Source: an uncultured Dehalococcoidia bacterium (lineage in GTDB: Bacteria > Chloroflexota > Dehalococcoidia > Lucifugimonadales > UBA3495). From it: a DNA stretch of 64,000 bases. The DNA is taken from the NCBI GenBank assembly GCA_958296445.1, contig OY282565.1, positions 2,435,570-2,499,569 on the forward strand, given 5' to 3'. The translations under genes were made by a program, and so were the position numbers. The notes under the pieces were generated by a model that searched no databases, was not told the origin of the DNA, and saw nothing but the letters and a program-made list of their open reading frames with translations. Shown here piece after piece: positions 1,974 through 48,846 of this stretch; the first letter of the stretch is position 1, and every line of letters begins with the position of its first letter.

Positions 1974-2570
1974 TTAAGCGTCGGTTCCAGTTATCGAAAC
2001 CACCTTGAACCTTCCGAAGCTACCGGACTTTTCAGGTCGCCAATCGCCCAGGCCGATACGCCGCCCCGCGATGTCCAACCACCTCTCAAGCCTGCTATGG
2101 TCAACCAGCTCCTCGTCAAAGTCAACCTTGAAAGTACACTCCCATGGAAGATTGAATTGCGCCCGCGTCCGAGGACGCCGTTTGCGTTGGACTACAACGA
2201 CGGTAGTGAATTGCGCGTTCCGGCAAATGGCCTCAATGCTGTTTCCGTAGCGTTCTTTGTCATACCTGAAGTCGGCATCGAGAACAACCAAACCTTCCCG
2301 AACAGCAGGGCCTTCCTTGGTTTTCCTAGCTGCCGTTTCGATGCAAGACCGGATGGCGGTTACGGGGATGGTAGGCTCCGATCCCTTGAGCCAAAGCGAG
2401 ACGTAGGTTTCGAGTTCTCGCAACCGGGCTTCATCGGATTCGGTGAGGTTGCGACTACCCTTGCTAATGATGGTCTCGATTTCCGCTTTCTGAGGGGATT
2501 TGGAGTAAGCGGAGTCTCCATTGTGCATAAGGATGGGGGACTCCCCAACGATTTTGACCGTGGATTCCAT
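1974..2570 (-). CDS. Phage-like RAMP-type hypothetical protein
   Basis: This is a 198-residue protein of uncertain function. The N-terminus reads KIVGESPILMHNG, and the C-terminus has a glycine/aromatic loop GRRIGLGDWRPEKSGSFGRF. As I recall, the pairing of an N-terminal LMHN strand with a C-terminal G.GDWRP..GRF loop occurs in small phage-encoded proteins, and it resembles the first strand and glycine-rich loop of RAMP (Cas7-like) folds; both links are inference. A middle segment (IPVTAIRSCIETAAR) could be the RAMP-like helix. The start is ATG with AGGAG ten bases upstream. It is the last gene of a three-gene minus-strand cassette with an HNH gene and a small membrane protein, and overlaps the HNH reading frame by 211 bp. 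Confidence 0.6.
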   Translation of the reverse strand: MESTVKIVGESPILMHNGDSAYSKSPQKAEIETIISKGSRNLTESDEARLRELETYVSLWLKGSEPTIPVTAIRSCIETAARKTKEGPAVREGLVVLDADFRYDKERYGNSIEAICRNAQFTTVVVVQRKRRPRTRAQFNLPWECTFKVDFDEELVDHSRLERWLDIAGRRIGLGDWRPEKSGSFGRFKVVSITGTDA

Positions 2571-2884
2571 GTGTTCTCATCTCCTGTTTTGTAAGTTTCT
2601 GCGATTGCTGATTCAAAGGCGGCTTTTAATTCCCATTCCTTGCCTTGGAATCGCCGCAGGGTGGTTGCCAAGTGATGGCAGAATTTGCATAGAGCCGTCA
2701 AGTCATCTGCCGTGGTCTGTTCCGGCAACGGATATGTCATTGCCCAATGGTGGGCGTGTTCCGCCGGATTTATCCCGCAGAGCTGGCACTTGTAGTCGGA
2801 ACGGACAAAGGCTTCGGTTCTCGCTTTCAAATACTGCGGATGGAAGTAGTCGTATTTCGCATTCCGGTTTTTTCTTTTAGCCAA
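2360..2884 (-). CDS. HNH endonuclease domain protein
   Basis: A compact HNH/zinc domain is visible: CQLC, then AEHAHHWAM, then ALCKFCHH, giving two CxxC pairs around the HH active-site region. The TTG start at 2884 is preferred to the longer TTG at 2956 because AGGAGGG lies seven bases upstream; the product is then 174 residues. Such proteins commonly act as nicking or packaging nucleases in phages and mobile elements. The last ~70 residues overlap the next gene in another frame and look low in information, so the original stop may have been lost by a small frameshift near the downstream ribosome-binding site. The cassette context suggests phage origin. Confidence 0.75.
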   Translation of the reverse strand: MAKRKNRNAKYDYFHPQYLKARTEAFVRSDYKCQLCGINPAEHAHHWAMTYPLPEQTTADDLTALCKFCHHLATTLRRFQGKEWELKAAFESAIAETYKTGDENTWNPRSKSLGSPPSLCTMETPLTPNPLRKRKSRPSLARVVATSPNPMKPGCENSKPTSRFGSRDRSLPSP

Positions 2885-2959
2885 TGGCTGCCCTCCTGCC
2901 TTGGCCAAGAACAAGCCGGGCAGGCCGTCTTGGCCCAAATTCACGCTGCCTGCCAAAGA

Positions 2960-3103
2960 CTACCGGCGAAATAGAAACCAGAATAGACCAGCCAACCCCA
3001 AAGGCGCAGTAAGCCAGAACCAGGGGGAGGTTAGAATCTGGATTGCGACGTGCAGTGCCACGGCTACCCCGACAACCATGATGGCCGCAACGAATGGATG
3101 CAT
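2960..3103 (-). CDS. Small two-helix membrane protein
   Basis: This short reading frame encodes 47 residues starting MHPFVAAIMVVG. Residues about 4-22 and 27-44 form two hydrophobic segments separated by a short turn, and the C-terminus is FLFRR. TTGGAGGAAATC immediately precedes the ATG at 3103; an in-frame ATG at 3130 would add nine residues but has no ribosome-binding site. It heads a minus-strand cassette with the HNH and RAMP-like genes. A holin-like or membrane-anchoring role is possible but not shown. Confidence 0.6.
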   Translation of the reverse strand: MHPFVAAIMVVGVAVALHVAIQILTSPWFWLTAPLGLAGLFWFLFRR

Positions 3104-3179
3104 GATTTCCTCCAAGTTAAATTTGCCCATCAGCGCGGTGAACGCAAAAGTGGGCTACAAGTAATGCTTGGAGGAGGGG

Positions 3180-3653
3180 CTATTCCAATTGAGGAACTGC
3201 GCCAGATAAACCGGCCGGGTTGAGCGCGGCTATCCGACGAGGAGCGAAAAGGAGGGGAGGGTTACCTGCTCTGGCGAGACAAAGGGGATAGGCCAACACA
3301 AAATTCGAGGACAACGAAATAAGGCGGCGCAACCGCGGCAGAATTTCGGAATCAGCAGGGCGGGCCGTTATTGAATGCATACACCAGCGGCCAAAGGCGG
3401 CGATGTAGCGCAACGCCAAGGCGATGGCGAAGGTTAAGGCAAGGATTTTGCCGAAGGGGATAAGCAGGGGAATCAAGGCCCCATACATAGGCTGCCATTC
3501 GGGCGAGCCTGTAGCCGCCAACAACAGACAACAAAATAGAGCAGGCATCAAGACGCAGGCTGCCGTGATTAGCACCAGCAAATACCTGCCCAATATGCCG
3601 ACTTCGCGGCCCGATGCTCCCAAGCTATCCAATATGTCACGGACTGGCATCAT
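3180..3653 (-). CDS. Small integral membrane protein, paralogue A
   Basis: The product is about 157 residues from MMPVRDILDSLG, with hydrophobic segments near residues 22-47 and 57-80 and a third weaker one near 108-120. The region upstream of this start in the same frame is poorly conserved in style, so the ATG pair at 3653/3650 is preferred. It is a paralogue of the protein at 5402-5902: both have an FG(R/H)WC segment after the second helix and end in AGLSGA.P.LE. It follows the 3784-4335 and 4363-5229 genes on the same strand and may be cotranscribed with them. The function is unknown. Confidence 0.65.
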   Translation of the reverse strand: MMPVRDILDSLGASGREVGILGRYLLVLITAACVLMPALFCCLLLAATGSPEWQPMYGALIPLLIPFGKILALTFAIALALRYIAAFGRWCMHSITARPADSEILPRLRRLISLSSNFVLAYPLCLARAGNPPLLFAPRRIAALNPAGLSGAVPQLE

Positions 3654-3783
3654 AAACCTACTGTAGCATAGGCAGACAAAGACGTCAACGCAGAGAGTAT
3701 CATGTTGCCGGTTTGCCAAGCAGGGGATGGCTTCCCCTGCTTGGCCCGGCATCCGACAGAAAGCAGAAACGCGGAGTATGCGC

Positions 3784-4335
3784 TTACTCCCGGTCAACGC
3801 ATTCGGCGACCAGAGACTGCGGCGGATCGCCGGAGATTGGCGGCCATACGCTGACCACTAGGCGGATGTCGTCGGACAGGAGGGCGTCGGGTATTTTGAC
3901 TTTGACGTAGAATTCGGAATCGGTGACTTGGTATTCGTCGGGATTGGCGAACAGGTCGGAGCTGTCGCTGTCGAACCGCGAGGACATATATCGCGGCCAG
4001 ATGGATGCCACGGTTTCCAACCGCGAATCGTCTTCGGAGATTTGTTTCAGGTTGCTCATGTTGAACGCCGGCCAAATGTAGCCGTCGGCGTTGCCGGAGC
4101 GGGCGTCGTGTATCCGCTCGCCGTCTTTCGTCCGGCCGCGCATAACTAGGTAGCCGTCGGCGGTTATGCTGGGTTTCTGCTCCCATTCGATTTTGTCCTG
4201 CGACGCTACGGCGCAACCGGAAAGAATCAGGTCGGGGTTGCATCCCCGGCCCCGCCTCGCGCCGGTAGAGGCGAGCAGCAGTATGGCGATCGCCGTCAGC
4301 ATAACGGCGGTCAGCGCGAATTTTTGGATAGTCAT
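3784..4335 (-). CDS. Secreted or membrane-anchored hypothetical protein
   Basis: The protein is 183 residues. An N-terminal hydrophobic stretch (FALTAVMLTAIAILLLAST, residues 6-24) looks like a signal peptide or anchor, followed by a hydrophilic domain rich in Asp and Ser. No lipobox is clear. AGGAGAG lies eight bases upstream of the ATG. The gene starts 27 bp after the DUF4328 gene and precedes membrane paralogue A, so the three probably form an operon. I recognise no family. A longer reading frame on the same strand (3794-4447) overlaps it but is an Arg-rich shadow. Confidence 0.7.
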   Translation of the reverse strand: MTIQKFALTAVMLTAIAILLLASTGARRGRGCNPDLILSGCAVASQDKIEWEQKPSITADGYLVMRGRTKDGERIHDARSGNADGYIWPAFNMSNLKQISEDDSRLETVASIWPRYMSSRFDSDSSDLFANPDEYQVTDSEFYVKVKIPDALLSDDIRLVVSVWPPISGDPPQSLVAECVDRE

Positions 4336-38267: not shown

Positions 38268-39821
38268 TCAGTTGCCCCACTGTATCGGCGAGCAGCCCAA
38301 TATCGGGTGAGCAGGCTTGCCATCGTGGATGCACACATCCCATTGTTCGTCGCCCAAACGAATGTCAGGCAAATTCGTCAAGACCTTGACAGTCAGCCTC
38401 CCCGAACTGGGGTAGTACCAATGTTCTTCGCCTCCGCCATCTATACACCATACAGTCCTGCTACTTTCGTCTACTCCATCACAAGAGTATCCCCAAACTG
38501 AGTTGTATTTAGAGCCATTTCTGTAGACAACAACGTTCGGTTTGCAGGCAGTGCCTCCCGGGGTGCTCAAGTCGCAAGGCGAAAACGAGGACGAGCTGAT
38601 AGTGATGTCCAATTCAAGTACCCCATCGCTCGACACCGAAACGCCGCTTTTCCAGTCAATCGTAGGCAAGTCCCTGCTGTCCGGGGTATGACCCGCTATC
38701 AGCAAAGGCATACGCTCTTGGATAGCCTTCGCTGAGACACCTTTGGCAAAGGGCTGATTTCGGACACTTCCGGCGTGAATGCCCACAACATACCCGTCCC
38801 TGTTTAATAATGGCCCGCCGGAATTGCCTGAAGTGGTGTTCAAATCGCTTTCCAAATCCCACCCCCTTTGGTTCGGTTCGGAGTTGATGACATCAATTTC
38901 CCCCCATGTAGCTTCCATTTCGGATGCGCCCAAGGGATAGCCAAAAGCGCCAATCTCATCCCCGCTGAAATATGCTCCGGCCTCAACCAACGGTAAGGCC
39001 CGGAAATCATCGGAGCAACAAATCCAGACTATGGCGAAATCATACAGGTCGTCTTCCCCAACCACTAGGCCGGAGTAGGTAGCCCTGTCTCCGACTCTCG
39101 CCGCAATTGTGCCGCTGGCGTCTTCGACTACGTGCTGGTTGGTGGCAACGTATGCCCAGTTATCCATTGCTTGGATGATGAACCCGGAGCCGCTCCCCCC
39201 GCCGGTTGCCAGCCGGACAATGGACGGCTGAACCAAATCTATCACTTCCCGATACGACATCCGCGGCTCAGGCGTGGGCGCAGGAGTGGGCGTCGCCGTT
39301 GGCCTGGGCGTCGGCGTCGCCGTTGGCCTAGGCGTGGCGGTTGGCGTGGGGGGCGGCGTTGCCGTAGGAACGGGCGTCGGCGTCGCCGTAGGCGCGGGCG
39401 TAGGCGTAGGTGTTGCCGTAGGCACAGGCGTCGCCGTTGGAACAGGCGTCGCCGTAGGCGCGGGCGTAGGCGTAGGTGTTGCCGTAGGCACAGGCGTCGC
39501 CGTTGGAACAGGCGTTGGCGTAGGCACGGGCGTTGGAGTTGGAACAGCGGCGACGGTGGCGGATATACTGGCCGCCACAGTCGCGGATATGTCCGGCGTA
39601 GCCGTAGGAACCGGCATAGGCGTAGCCGTTGGAGCGGGTGTAGCCGTTGCCGCAGGCGTTGCGGTAGGAACGGCGGCGGCGGAGATACCGGCCGCCACAG
39701 TCGCGGATATGTCCGGCGTAGCCGTGGGAACCGGCGTAGGGGTTGGCGCATCCGTGGGTGCCGCCGTGGGTGTGGGGGCAGTGCAGGCTATCGCGGCCAC
39801 CAGCGCATTCCGCCTCTCCAT
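38268..39821 (-). CDS. Secreted trypsin-like serine protease with Pro/Thr stalk
   Basis: The 517 residues begin with a short hydrophobic run ending AAIAC, which may be a lipobox, then a long [15 protein letters not shown] stalk (about 13-185). The protease domain has NQHVVED (His), YDFAIVW (Asp) and [11 protein letters not shown] (Ser), the complete triad of a DegP/trypsin-type fold. The C-terminal part (about 390-510) is beta-rich with six Cys, of which I recognise no family. The start at 39821 is a compromise; an in-frame ATG at 39884 is possible and no ribosome-binding site decides it. A promoter lies upstream and a terminator downstream. Confidence 0.8.
39385..39516. repeat. 66-bp minisatellite in protease stalk
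   Basis: Two near-perfect 66-bp copies (39385-39450, 39451-39516) encode the 22-residue repeat in the Pro/Thr stalk. The following sequence is a partial, diverged third copy. It is likely unstable in length. Confidence 0.85.
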
Positions 39822-39882
39822 ATAAGAAGTGGCAGTATAAAAACCGCGCCAACGAATCACAAGGACGGTCCGAAATCCGCGC

Positions 39883-39930
39883 ATAAAGAAAGGCCGGAGC
39901 TATGTCTGAAAAGACTTCCGCTCCGACCTT
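39883..39930 (-). terminator. Hairpin terminator/attenuator before protease gene
   Basis: On the minus strand AAGGTCGGAGC pairs with GCTCCGGCCTT (one mismatch) and is followed by TCTTTAT. It lies between a -35/-10 promoter at 39997-40025 and the protease gene, and downstream of tRNA-Gly. Confidence 0.6.
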
Positions 39931-40958: not shown

Positions 40959-42137
40959 ATGAAACGCGAAGTTTTCTTCTTCACCGAAATGGGCTATACC
41001 GCCTATCCGCAGGACGAAGCCCAGCGGCGCGGCTACAACAACCTGATGTTCCCCAACGAACATTTCAGCCCGGAAAAAGCCCAAGAACTCTATGGAATGT
41101 ACTTCGACGAGTTGCAATACTGCACCGAAGCCGGCTTCGACGGCGTGATGATTAACGAGCATCACAACAACCCGCTGTGCATGATGCCCTCGGTCAACGT
41201 CATCGGCTCAGTGCTGGCAAGCCGAACCAAGCAGGGCAAGATAGTCTTCCTCGGCAACGTCCTGCCCATCCACGACAACCCCCTGCGCGTCGCCGAGGAA
41301 GTGGCGATGATTGACATACTCTCCGGCGGGCGCGTGGTCTGCGGGTTCGTCCGCGGCATCGGCCAAGAAAGTATGGCAACCAACACCAACCCCATCTACA
41401 ACCGCGAGCGGTTCGACGAAGCCCACAACGTAATCGTCCAGGCCTGGACTACTCCCGGCCCCTTCCGCTACGAAGGCAAGCATTACCACTACCGGGTAGT
41501 CAACCCGTGGGTAATGCCGCTCCAGAAGCCCCACCCGCCCATCTGGATTCCCGGCGTCGCCTCGCCCGAATCGGTCATCTGGGCCGCCAAACACAAATAC
41601 CCCTACGTCGCCCTGGCCCCGCCGCTGGATCTGCTGTCGGACATCTACCGCCTCTATCAGAACACCGCCGAGGCCGACGGCTGGACGCCCACCCCGGAGC
41701 ATCGCGGCTATGCGGTGCGGGTGAACGTGGCCGACTCCGACGAAAAGGCGTATGAGGAAGGCAAAAACTTCTACTGGCAGCTAGGCACATCCTTCGGCGT
41801 GACCCCGCCCCACTGGCTGGCCCCGCCGGGCTACCTGACCCGCGCCGCCGCCACCGGCGCCCGCGAGCAGGCCCGCCGCGCCGTCCAAACCGTCGTCCCC
41901 GGCGGCCCCGTCCTACCCTACGAGGACGCCCAAGCCACCTACCAGATAGTCACCGGCAACCCCGACACCGTAATCCGCAAGCTAAAGCACCTCATAGACA
42001 TCATAGACCCCGGCTACGTCATCCTGTGGGGCCGCGAAGGCCCAATGACCCACCAAGTCGCCATGCGCAGCATAGACCTGATGGCCCAAGAAGTAATCCC
42101 GGCCATCCGCGACTACCAAGCCCAACGCGCGGAGTAG
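40959..42137 (+). CDS. LLM-class flavin-dependent oxidoreductase
   Basis: The 392-residue TIM-barrel enzyme of the bacterial luciferase/alkanal-monooxygenase type has EAGFDGVMINEHHN, LPIHDNPLRVAEEVAMID, SGGRVVCGFVRG and PPIWIPGVASPESV. These enzymes use reduced FMN or F420 and O2 (or oxidise alcohols). AAGGGGG lies before the ATG. The PaREP1-like gene follows within 12 bp. Substrate and flavin cannot be assigned. Confidence 0.92.
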   Translation: MKREVFFFTEMGYTAYPQDEAQRRGYNNLMFPNEHFSPEKAQELYGMYFDELQYCTEAGFDGVMINEHHNNPLCMMPSVNVIGSVLASRTKQGKIVFLGNVLPIHDNPLRVAEEVAMIDILSGGRVVCGFVRGIGQESMATNTNPIYNRERFDEAHNVIVQAWTTPGPFRYEGKHYHYRVVNPWVMPLQKPHPPIWIPGVASPESVIWAAKHKYPYVALAPPLDLLSDIYRLYQNTAEADGWTPTPEHRGYAVRVNVADSDEKAYEEGKNFYWQLGTSFGVTPPHWLAPPGYLTRAAATGAREQARRAVQTVVPGGPVLPYEDAQATYQIVTGNPDTVIRKLKHLIDIIDPGYVILWGREGPMTHQVAMRSIDLMAQEVIPAIRDYQAQRAE

Positions 42138-43150: not shown

Positions 43151-43183
43151 CCACCTCGAACCTAATCCAAAGGAGATGATGCT

Positions 43184-43687
43184 ATGGCCGAAATGCTACA
43201 ACAGGGAGCCCGTTTCCCCCAACTCGACCTAACGCTGCTGGATGGCGGAACGCTGGCTTTGCCCGGCGGCGCCCCCAGCCGCTACACCGCGCTGCTGTTC
43301 TACCGCGGCCACTGGTGACCCTACTGCCAGCGGCAGTTGGCCGCCTACGAAGCCGCCAAACCCGAACTCGAAGCGCTAGGCGTCACCGTCATCGCCGTAA
43401 GCGCCGACACCCAAGAACAGGCCCAAGAAGTGAAAGGCCGCGGCCTGAGCTTCCCCGTCGCCTATGGCGCCACCCAAGCCGACGCCGACAGCATCGGCGC
43501 CTGGTGGTCCGACGACCGGGGCGGGTTCATCCAGCCCGCCGAGTTCCTGCTGGGCCGCGGCGGCGTGGTGCTGGGCGCAATGTACGCCTCCGGCCCGGTG
43601 GGGCGAATGGGCGCCGATGAAGTCATCCATGCCATAACCTCCCGCGAAAACCGCCGCCGCCAAGAGGAAGGCGAAACCCCGGCATAA
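43184..43687 (+). CDS. Peroxiredoxin-like UxxC protein, probable selenoprotein
   Basis: From ATG 43184 (AAAGGAG upstream) to TAA 43687 the frame has 168 codons, with one in-frame TGA at codon 45 (43316-43318). The context is FYRGHW-TGA-PYCQRQL, where AhpC/TSA-like proteins have RGxWCPYCxxQL, so TGA replaces the first catalytic Cys of a CxxC. The rest of the fold is intact: VTVIAVSADTQEQAQE, FPVAYGAT, FIQPAEFLL and GADEVIHAI. Candidate SECIS stems follow the TGA. Known environmental selenoproteins include peroxiredoxin-like UxxC enzymes, so I read this as UGA=Sec, peroxide or disulfide reduction. selA/selB/selC are not in the window. A sequencing error or recent nonsense mutation is the alternative. 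Confidence 0.75.
43319..43344 (+). promoter_or_regulatory. Candidate SECIS hairpin after UGA
   Basis: A stem GCGGC (43330-43334) with loop AGTTG and GCCGC (43340-43344) starts its loop 16 bases after the TGA, within the usual bacterial SECIS spacing, with G as the second loop base. A competing stem is ACTGCC (43323-43328) and GGCAGT (43332-43337). Both are short, so the call is tentative. Confidence 0.4.
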
Positions 43688-43808: not shown

Positions 43809-44633
43809 ATGAACGAAGCCAACCGGCAACTGGTTGATCTGATGGAGCACGTCTGGCGCTCCATCGCCGCCCTCTGCGACGGCCTGCCCGAAGCGGACTG
43901 GAAAACGCCCACCGACTGCCCCGGCTGGTCGGTGCAGGATCAGGTGTCCCACTTGGCCGGCTCCGAAACCGGCATCCTGGGAGACCCCGACCCCGACCAC
44001 ACCCCCAGCCAGCAGGCCCTCGCCCACACCCGCAGCGAGCAGGGGCAGCGCAACGAAATCGTCGTGGATTTCCGCCGCCCCTGGAGCGGACAGCAGGTAT
44101 TGTCGGACTTTCGCGCCAAGACCGCCCGCCGGGTGGAAATCCTGCGGGCAATGTCCGACGACGACTTTGCCGCGGAGATGCAAACCCCGGTAGGCCCGGG
44201 CCCGGTGTCCGAGTTCCTGAGCATCCGCATTATGGACGCCTGGATTCACGAACAGGACATACGCCGCGCCCTGAACCGCCCCGGCGAGCTGGACAGCCCG
44301 GCCGCCGCCCACGCCTTGGGCCGCATCATCCGCGCTATGCCCTACGTCGCCGCCCGCCGCGCCCAGGCCCCCGACGGCGCCACGGTGCTGTTCGACATCT
44401 CCGGCCCCGCCGGACGCCTTATGCCCATCGAAGTCCAGAGCGGACGGGGCCGCGAGCTGGAGCAGCCCCCGCAAACCCCCACCGTCCGCATCACCCTAGA
44501 CGCCGAAACCTTCGGCTGCCTAGGCAGCGGCCGCTGGCAACCCGACGAAGCCCTACAATCAGGCAAAATATCCATCCAAGGCGACACCGCCCTAGGCCAG
44601 TCCATAGTCCGCCAAATGAACATTATGCCCTAA
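43809..44633 (+). CDS. Mycothiol-dependent maleylpyruvate isomerase family
   Basis: The 274-residue protein has the DinB/MDMPI fold: MNEANRQLVDLMEHVWRSI, CPGWSVQDQVSHLAGSE and MDAWIHEQDIRRAL. The C-terminal ~80 residues resemble an SCP2/sterol-carrier domain. The family isomerises maleylpyruvate or acts with small thiols (mycothiol, bacillithiol). TAGGGA precedes the ATG at 43809; a start eight codons upstream (43785) is possible. Its location among aromatic-degradation-type genes is consistent but not proof. Confidence 0.8.
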   Translation: MNEANRQLVDLMEHVWRSIAALCDGLPEADWKTPTDCPGWSVQDQVSHLAGSETGILGDPDPDHTPSQQALAHTRSEQGQRNEIVVDFRRPWSGQQVLSDFRAKTARRVEILRAMSDDDFAAEMQTPVGPGPVSEFLSIRIMDAWIHEQDIRRALNRPGELDSPAAAHALGRIIRAMPYVAARRAQAPDGATVLFDISGPAGRLMPIEVQSGRGRELEQPPQTPTVRITLDAETFGCLGSGRWQPDEALQSGKISIQGDTALGQSIVRQMNIMP

Positions 44634-48381: not shown

Positions 48382-48846
48382 ATGGACAATTCCGGCAATA
48401 AAGCCCTCCGCGACCTAGGCATATTCTACTGCGCGGTATTCCTGGTTTCCCTAGCCGCCACCTCCCTCGCCCTATGGCTGTATTGGGACACCTGGCGGCT
48501 GAACAGCCTGATACCCGCGCTGTCCAACGTCTTCACCGTATCCGCAGGCATCGCCCTGCTAACAACAATCCTCAAAGAGGCGGGATGGTATATGGTACTA
48601 GCCACGATAAAAGCAAAAGATTTGAAAGAGGAAGGACGCAAGGAAGGCCATAAAGAAGGCCACAAGGAAGGAATCGCGGAAGGCATCAAGGAAGGCCACA
48701 AAGAAGGCATCAAGGAAGGCGAGGAACGGCGCCAACGGCGGGAAGACGAGGCTTACGCCAAGTTCGGCGTCGAAGTCAACGGCGTCCTTATGCTCCCCCG
48801 GACGCCGGAAGTCCAGCGGTTCCTGTCCAGCGAGCCGGAAGAATAG
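48382..48846 (+). CDS. Membrane protein with KEG(H/I) repeat tail
   Basis: The 154 residues have two hydrophobic helices (about 12-36 and 42-63), then a helical EGHKEG/EGIKEG repeat tract (about 80-115) and a short acidic end. The repeat tract is encoded by degenerate 12-bp units. Similar lysine/glutamate/glycine tracts occur in Yae1-like or uncharacterised membrane-tethered proteins. It is probably a membrane-anchored charged stalk; function is unknown. Start ATG 48382. Confidence 0.6.
   Translation: MDNSGNKALRDLGIFYCAVFLVSLAATSLALWLYWDTWRLNSLIPALSNVFTVSAGIALLTTILKEAGWYMVLATIKAKDLKEEGRKEGHKEGHKEGIAEGIKEGHKEGIKEGEERRQRREDEAYAKFGVEVNGVLMLPRTPEVQRFLSSEPEE

What the first reader, a model, noticed from the sequence alone, without database searches (positions are those of the whole stretch)
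43184..43687. Peroxiredoxin-like gene with TGA at catalytic Cys: probable selenoprotein
The frame is open across 168 codons apart from one TGA at codon 45. TGA sits exactly where AhpC/TSA-like proteins have the first Cys of RGxWCPYC, giving UxxC. The downstream sequence keeps coding for a full thioredoxin fold and a hairpin loop starts 16 bases after the TGA. A good ribosome-binding site precedes the ATG. Known environmental peroxiredoxin-like selenoproteins show the same UxxC pattern, so this suggests the organism makes selenocysteine.
Basis: partly seen in the sequence, partly recalled or inferred. Interest (0 to 1): 0.88.

Follow-up and report, generated by a model that had tools for sequence, protein, structure and literature searches.

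The report
Selenium-containing peroxiredoxin-like redox enzyme
This gene almost certainly makes a small redox enzyme with the rare amino acid selenocysteine in its active site, encoded by what looks like a stop codon; the protein type was already known from the ocean, but this shows it is conserved through a large group of uncultured Chloroflexota bacteria and that the genome carries the machinery to make it.

Summary
At 43184-43687 an ATG frame runs 167 codons to TAA, with one in-frame TGA at codon 45 (43316-43318), giving RGHW-U-PYC. It is a selenoprotein gene, not a broken gene. The 4.0-Mb genome has tRNA-Sec, SelA, SelB and SelD, and SelD is itself a selenoprotein. In 74 distinct family sequences this codon is TGA; 35 have TGC/TGT. 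After the TGA lies a bacterial SECIS hairpin (CGGC-AGUUR-GCCG, loop 16 nt after UGA). It is held by an extreme choice of synonymous codons, shows compensatory base changes, and is absent from all Cys relatives. An alignment-based model is a confident (pLDDT 93) peroxiredoxin fold. Sec45 aligns with the Thr/Ser of PxxxT/SxxC and Cys48 with the peroxidatic Cys. So it is a thioredoxin-like UxxC enzyme, probably a thioredoxin-dependent peroxidase or thiol:disulfide oxidoreductase; its substrate is not shown. Sec-containing 'Prx-like' UxxC proteins were described from marine metagenomes in 2005-2008, so this is a new member of a known kind. Added here: host lineage, SECIS evidence, a possible second SECIS register, a Sec-to-Ser tandem copy, and at least 11 candidate Sec genes in this genome.

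The parts
43169..43175 (+). ribosome-binding site AAAGGAG, 8 nt before the ATG
43184..43687 (+). selenoprotein gene: peroxiredoxin-like UxxC protein, 167 residues, ATG...TAA
   Evidence: Pfam AhpC-TSA 65 bits (cut-off 26), Redoxin 51 bits; AlphaFold2 mean pLDDT 92.9 with an alignment of 28
43316..43318 (+). TGA codon 45, read as selenocysteine (first residue of U-P-Y-C)
   Evidence: TGA in 74 distinct family sequences, TGC/TGT in 35, TCA in 1, TAC in 1
43325..43327 (+). TGC codon 48: partner cysteine, aligned with the peroxidatic Cys of peroxiredoxins
   Evidence: Cys in all 74 Sec and all 35 Cys sequences; alignments
43330..43344 (+). SECIS hairpin GCGGC-AGUUG-GCCGC, apical loop 43335-43339, 16 nt after the UGA
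   Evidence: codon constraint, covariation, fits the published bacterial SECIS model
40959..42137 (+). upstream neighbour: luciferase-like monooxygenase; a homologue lies upstream in about a third of the relatives' loci
   Evidence: Pfam PF00296; neighbour clustering
43809..44633 (+). downstream neighbour: mycothiol-dependent maleylpyruvate isomerase-like (TIGR03083) protein; a homologue follows in about 10 of 55 loci

Best explanation
The gene encodes a 167-residue selenoprotein of the peroxiredoxin-like UxxC type, probably cytoplasmic (no signal peptide by inspection). During translation SelB bound to Sec-tRNA(Sec) is brought to UGA codon 45 by the hairpin GCGGC-AGUUG-GCCGC that starts 11 nt after the UGA within the coding sequence, and Sec is inserted instead of termination (inferred from machinery, SECIS and conservation). 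In the folded protein Sec45 sits at the N-terminus of the first active-site helix, one turn before Cys48, as in thioredoxin-like CxxC enzymes (model). The selenolate most likely attacks a peroxide or a client disulfide, the intermediate is resolved by Cys48 as a Se-S bond, and thioredoxin or a similar thiol re-reduces it (inferred by analogy). Shown: gene, TGA conservation, SECIS constraint, machinery, predicted fold. Inferred: Sec insertion itself, catalytic cycle, reductant, substrate. I put 0.97 on selenoprotein, about 0.55 on peroxide reduction as the main activity and about 0.4 on thiol:disulfide exchange.
For: Own genome: tRNA-Sec with anticodon TCA, SelA, SelB and SelD, all above curated cut-offs. 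TGA at the same codon in 74 distinct family sequences down to about 40% identity, TGC/TGT in 35. Tree: a 52-member all-Sec clade (SH-aLRT 96) and only 6 changes of state in 96 sequences against about 22 in shuffles. Codon choice just after the TGA in Sec genes: Arg50 CGG 62/73 (24% elsewhere in the same genes, p=7e-25), Gln51 CAG 74/74 (63%), Leu52 TTG/TTA 66/73 (17%, p=4e-39), Ala53 GCC 62/64 (47%, p=2e-17). The full 4-bp core with xGU loop is in 58 of 74 Sec and 0 of 35 Cys genes. Stem covariation score 0.213 against 0.098 +/- 0.013 in shuffles (0/500) and at most 0.098 when slid; pair 15-29 switches G-C (33), U-A (13), C-G (3). Spacing 16 nt and G in the first two loop positions, as in the published model (PMC13188914). 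Among relatives at least 90% complete, all 33 genomes with a Sec copy have SelA; the four without SelA have a Cys copy (G091) or no orthologue. Fold: pLDDT 92.9, nearest solved structures are peroxiredoxins (AhpC2, Bcp4, AhpE; TM up to about 0.83).
Against: No protein or read data. The window's own RNA folds best as an overlapping alternative hairpin, and energy z-scores are not significant. SelA is almost universal in this order (99 of 118 genomes), so its presence alone is weak support. Six genomes with a Sec copy lack a detected selA, all 67-88% complete. The canonical peroxiredoxin PxxxTxxC motif is absent, so peroxidase activity is not established.
Confidence: 0.95

Rival explanations
1. 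A broken gene: the TGA is a true premature stop in a decaying peroxiredoxin-like gene, or a sequencing error for TGC/TGT.
For: TGA is one base from TGC/TGT, and the frame is interrupted only at this codon.
Against: TGA at the same codon in 74 distinct sequences from many assemblies; purifying selection downstream of the TGA; SECIS constraint and Sec machinery.
Confidence: 0.01
2. A selenoprotein, but the RNA signal is the other overlapping hairpin (CUGC...GCAG) that is the minimum-energy fold, not CGGC-AGUUR-GCCG.
For: RNAfold of the window and RNAalifold on 60 sequences both prefer it.
Against: Its conserved pairs lie largely in codons fixed by Cys48 and Gln51; no pair has compensatory change and its covariation is no better than shuffled. 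It does not explain TTG/TTA at Leu52 or GCC at Ala53, and its loop is closer to the UGA than the published 16-37 nt range.
Confidence: 0.05
3. The whole genome reads TGA as an amino acid (reassigned code), so the protein carries Trp or Cys there.
For: The frame is open when TGA is read through.
Against: The MFS transporter in the window ends in TGA; the position is Cys in non-TGA relatives; the genome has a complete Sec system; in the other genes checked, in-frame TGA lies at redox positions.
Confidence: 0.005

Closest known systems
Prx-like (UxxC) selenoproteins, 'Prx-like 1' of marine metagenomes / 'Prx-like thiol:disulfide oxidoreductase' (PMC1088965, PMC2398784, PMC13188914)
   Same: Pfam AhpC-TSA domain, thioredoxin-like UxxC in place of TxxU, marine origin, Sec and Cys forms
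   Different: The passages I read group metagenome sequences without naming this lineage; no sequence of theirs could be aligned here, so identity of the subfamily is not proven
Peroxiredoxin-like family cd02970 (a UxxS Sec form is listed in PMC13188914)
   Same: From my knowledge, this is the PRX_like2 group with the CxxC-type RGxWCPYC motif that the Cys relatives here carry
   Different: UxxC here, not UxxS; cd02970 was not tested here (no CDD library)
Canonical peroxiredoxins (AhpC, Bcp/PrxQ, AhpE; Sec form with TxxU)
   Same: Same fold; Cys48 aligns with the peroxidatic Cys
   Different: No PxxxTxxC; Sec replaces the Thr/Ser three residues before the peroxidatic position
SelL-related redox proteins (NCBIfam NF040769)
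   Same: Weak similarity over the first half; Sec-containing redoxin family
   Different: 24 bits against a cut-off of 120
Tandem Sec redoxin lipoprotein-like genes in the same genome (G000:C1:2235914 and 2236594)
   Same: FYRGFWU-xx-CRGQL active site, AhpC-TSA domain
   Different: About 30% identity, long N-terminal signal/linker regions

Membership tests
Prx-like UxxC selenoprotein | AhpC-TSA (PF00578) domain | tested here: met
   65.3 bits, cut-off 26
Prx-like UxxC selenoprotein | in-frame TGA at the first position of a UxxC motif, Cys in homologues | tested here: met
   74 TGA, 35 TGC/TGT, Cys48 invariant among these
Prx-like UxxC selenoprotein | sequence kinship to the published representatives | not testable with these tools
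   representatives are given as accessions only
Bacterial SECIS | 3-9 nt loop, stem of at least 4 bp, G in first two loop positions, 16-37 nt from UGA | tested here: met
   5-nt loop AGUUG, 5-bp stem, spacing 16
Bacterial SECIS | structure conserved beyond protein coding | tested here: met
   codon constraint and covariation
Bacterial SECIS | directs Sec insertion | not testable with these tools
   needs a reporter assay
Sec-decoding organism | tRNA-Sec, SelA, SelB, SelD in the genome | tested here: met
Canonical peroxiredoxin | PxxxT/SxxC active site | tested here: not met
   RGHWUPYC; Sec in place of Thr/Ser, Arg in place of Pro
Canonical peroxiredoxin | peroxiredoxin fold | tested here: met
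   pLDDT 92.9; top PDB matches are peroxiredoxins
SelL-related redox protein (NF040769) | score above curated cut-off | tested here: not met
   24.4 bits against 120

The most novel reading that the evidence does not exclude
Within one orthologous family the SECIS has changed register. Most members use CGGC-AGUUR-GCCG with the loop 16 nt after the UGA. A well-supported subclade of seven (FRGxWUSYCRRQL) has lost that core and instead can form GGCAGCU-NGNN-AGCUACC with the loop 20 nt after the UGA, still with G at loop position 1 or 2. The family would then show how a SECIS moves inside a coding sequence while Sec decoding is kept, in a selenoprotein-rich, largely unstudied Chloroflexota lineage.
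Probability: 0.45. Interest if true: 0.5.

Novelty: new member of a known kind. Interest (0 to 1): 0.36.

Why it matters
Standard annotation would cut this gene in two. No NCBIfam model reaches its cut-off for the window protein and the family's matches are weak hits to other redoxin models, so the enzyme is probably missing from annotations of a widespread uncultured Chloroflexota group that includes SAR202 bacteria and sponge symbionts (inference). The genome has at least 11 candidate Sec genes, above the threshold of six that PMC5029168 uses for 'selenoprotein-rich'; that paper names Deltaproteobacteria, Clostridia and Synergistetes as such groups and its text does not mention Chloroflexi. 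The family also offers natural Sec, Cys and Ser versions, and perhaps two SECIS registers, for testing what Sec is kept for.

Tried and rejected
Single-sequence folding of the hairpin: not significant, and it picks another hairpin. A generic 'any hairpin that fits the published model' scan does not discriminate: 71/74 Sec but also 24/35 Cys genes pass, so I used the exact core, codon bias and covariation instead. RNAalifold prefers the overlapping hairpin; rejected on covariation. Rfam around the gene: only sub-threshold chance hits. Viral contigs: none. A single-sequence AlphaFold model was poor (pLDDT 43); replaced by the alignment-based one. A link to the upstream luciferase-like monooxygenase was considered: a homologue lies upstream in 17-18 of 55 loci, but such genes are numerous in SAR202 (from knowledge) and I made no chance control, so I draw no functional conclusion.

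Full report
OBSERVATION. The frame at 43184-43687 is as described: ATG, 167 codons, TAA, one TGA at codon 45 (43316-43318), ribosome-binding site AAAGGAG 8 nt upstream. GC by codon position does not change across the TGA and the nearest orthologue shows purifying selection on both sides. In the same window 34 in-frame TGAs have a redox-like motif and open frame on both sides; I judged only this one convincing.

WHAT IT IS. The read-through product is an AhpC-TSA protein (65 bits, cut-off 26). Using an alignment of 28 relatives, AlphaFold2 gives mean pLDDT 92.9 and pTM 0.88, and the first 50 matches among solved structures are peroxiredoxins (AhpC2, Bcp4, AhpE, ApPrx, PrxQ and others). In sequence alignments with peroxiredoxins Cys48 falls on the peroxidatic Cys and position 45 on the Thr/Ser of PxxxT/SxxC; against ResA, position 45 falls on the first Cys of its CxxC. 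It is therefore a peroxiredoxin fold with a thioredoxin-like UxxC site. The canonical peroxiredoxin motif is not met.

THE ORGANISM READS UGA AS SEC. The 4.0-Mb one-contig genome (93% complete) has tRNA-Sec (67.9 bits against 47; ARAGORN anticodon TCA), SelA (536 bits against 268), SelB (334 bits against 242) and SelD (376 bits against 125). SelD itself carries CAGU. Named relatives are mostly Chloroflexota MAGs labelled Chloroflexi, Dehalococcoidia or SAR202 cluster.

CONSERVATION. Across 118 relatives, a class-wide sample and named genomes, 111 distinct family sequences have at codon 45: TGA 74, TGC/TGT 35, TCA 1, TAC 1. The Cys forms include Ktedonobacter, Thermoflexus, Actinomycetota and Bacteroidota. 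A tree of 96 needs 6 changes of state (shuffled mean 22) and has a 52-row all-Sec clade holding the window gene (SH-aLRT 96). SelA is in 99 of 118 relatives above the cut-off. Reading together, all 33 genomes at least 90% complete with a Sec copy have SelA; the four such genomes without SelA have a Cys copy or none; six Sec genomes without SelA are 67-88% complete. SelA is so common here that this is supporting, not decisive.

THE SECIS. After the TGA most Sec genes read CCN TAY TGY NNN CGG CAG TTR GCC Gnn. Compared with the same amino acids elsewhere in the same genes, CGG (62/73 against 24%), CAG (74/74 against 63%), TTG/TTA (66/73 against 17%) and GCC (62/64 against 47%) are strongly over-used. 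These codons make CGGC-AGUUR-GCCG, with a loop of five starting 16 nt after the UGA and G second in the loop, as required by the published model (PMC13188914). The intact core with xGU loop is in 58/74 Sec and 0/35 Cys genes. On 60 distinct sequences the stem has covariation score 0.213 against 0.098 +/- 0.013 shuffled (0 of 500) and at most 0.098 when slid. Relatedness can inflate the shuffle test, but the slid controls share it. The overlapping minimum-energy hairpin shows none. Seven Sec genes of one well-supported clade lack this core; they can form GGCAGCU-NGNN-AGCUACC with the loop 20 nt after the UGA (sequences; hairpin noted and by inspection). That second register is a proposal: RNAalifold prefers another fold for these seven and they are too alike to show covariation.

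MECHANISM. Shown: gene, machinery, SECIS constraint, predicted fold. Inferred: SelB-dependent Sec insertion at UGA; Sec45 as attacking nucleophile at the helix N-terminus; Se-S bond with Cys48; reduction by thioredoxin. Whether the main substrate is a peroxide or a protein disulfide is open.

AGAINST WHAT IS KNOWN. Prx-like selenoproteins with UxxC were found in the Sargasso Sea (22 sequences; PMC1088965) and the Global Ocean Sampling set ('Prx-like 1', Pfam00578, UxxC, 225 sequences in 37 samples; PMC2398784), and are in the 2026 catalogue along with a cd02970 UxxS form (PMC13188914). Sponge symbiont bins, in a set that includes SAR202 bins, were reported to be enriched in SelA/SelB (PMC5649159). 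So this is a new member of a known kind. I found no paper in the library devoted to Chloroflexota selenoproteomes.

SELENOPROTEIN CANDIDATES IN THE SAME GENOME (lower bound, from family searches): this gene; a TxxU peroxiredoxin (866410); tandem redoxins with UTTC and UPVC (2235914, 2236594); a thioredoxin-like YCUVNC protein (1072188); two SelW-like proteins with CxxU (3848518, 2397706); SelD (1386245); two GrdB/PrdB-family proteins with UPLC and UPVC just past the matched region (3211854, 2621916); an AhpD-like protein with CRYU (1538972). That is 11.

Noticed in passing
L197 (G363:C43:46500-50500), 1951-2454 beside the Sec copy ending at 1908: Tandem duplicate in a relative: one copy keeps TGA (RGNWUPYC); the other, just downstream, has TCA (Ser, RGSWSPYC) and otherwise keeps the family's motifs; a possible natural Sec-to-Ser conversion.
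   Followed up: partly
L108, L109, L110, L111, L113, L115, L157 (seven relatives): A subclade with UGA-AGC-TAY-TGC-CGN-AGG-CAG-CTR lacks the usual CGGC/GCCG core and may form a hairpin with its loop 20 nt after the UGA.
   Followed up: partly
L049 (G000:C1:2233500-2239000), 2334-3023 and 2981-4192, - strand: Two adjacent redoxin genes in this genome with FYRGFWUTTC and FYRGFWUPVC and long N-terminal regions: probable secreted selenoproteins.
   Followed up: partly
L170, L180, L181, L182, L183, L184, L194 (own genome): Further probable selenoproteins: TxxU peroxiredoxin, YCUVNC thioredoxin-like, two SelW-like, two GrdB/PrdB-like, one AhpD-like CxxU.
   Followed up: partly
G104 (L051, L052): One genome (88% complete, no selA detected) has a Cys copy of the family and also a more distant TGA copy.
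   Followed up: no
window 38268-39884, - strand: Serine-protease-like protein (by eye) with a very long Pro-Thr-rich repetitive N-terminal stalk (PTATP repeats).
   Followed up: no
window 48382-48846, + strand: Small protein with a KEGHKEGIKEG-type repeat near its end.
   Followed up: no
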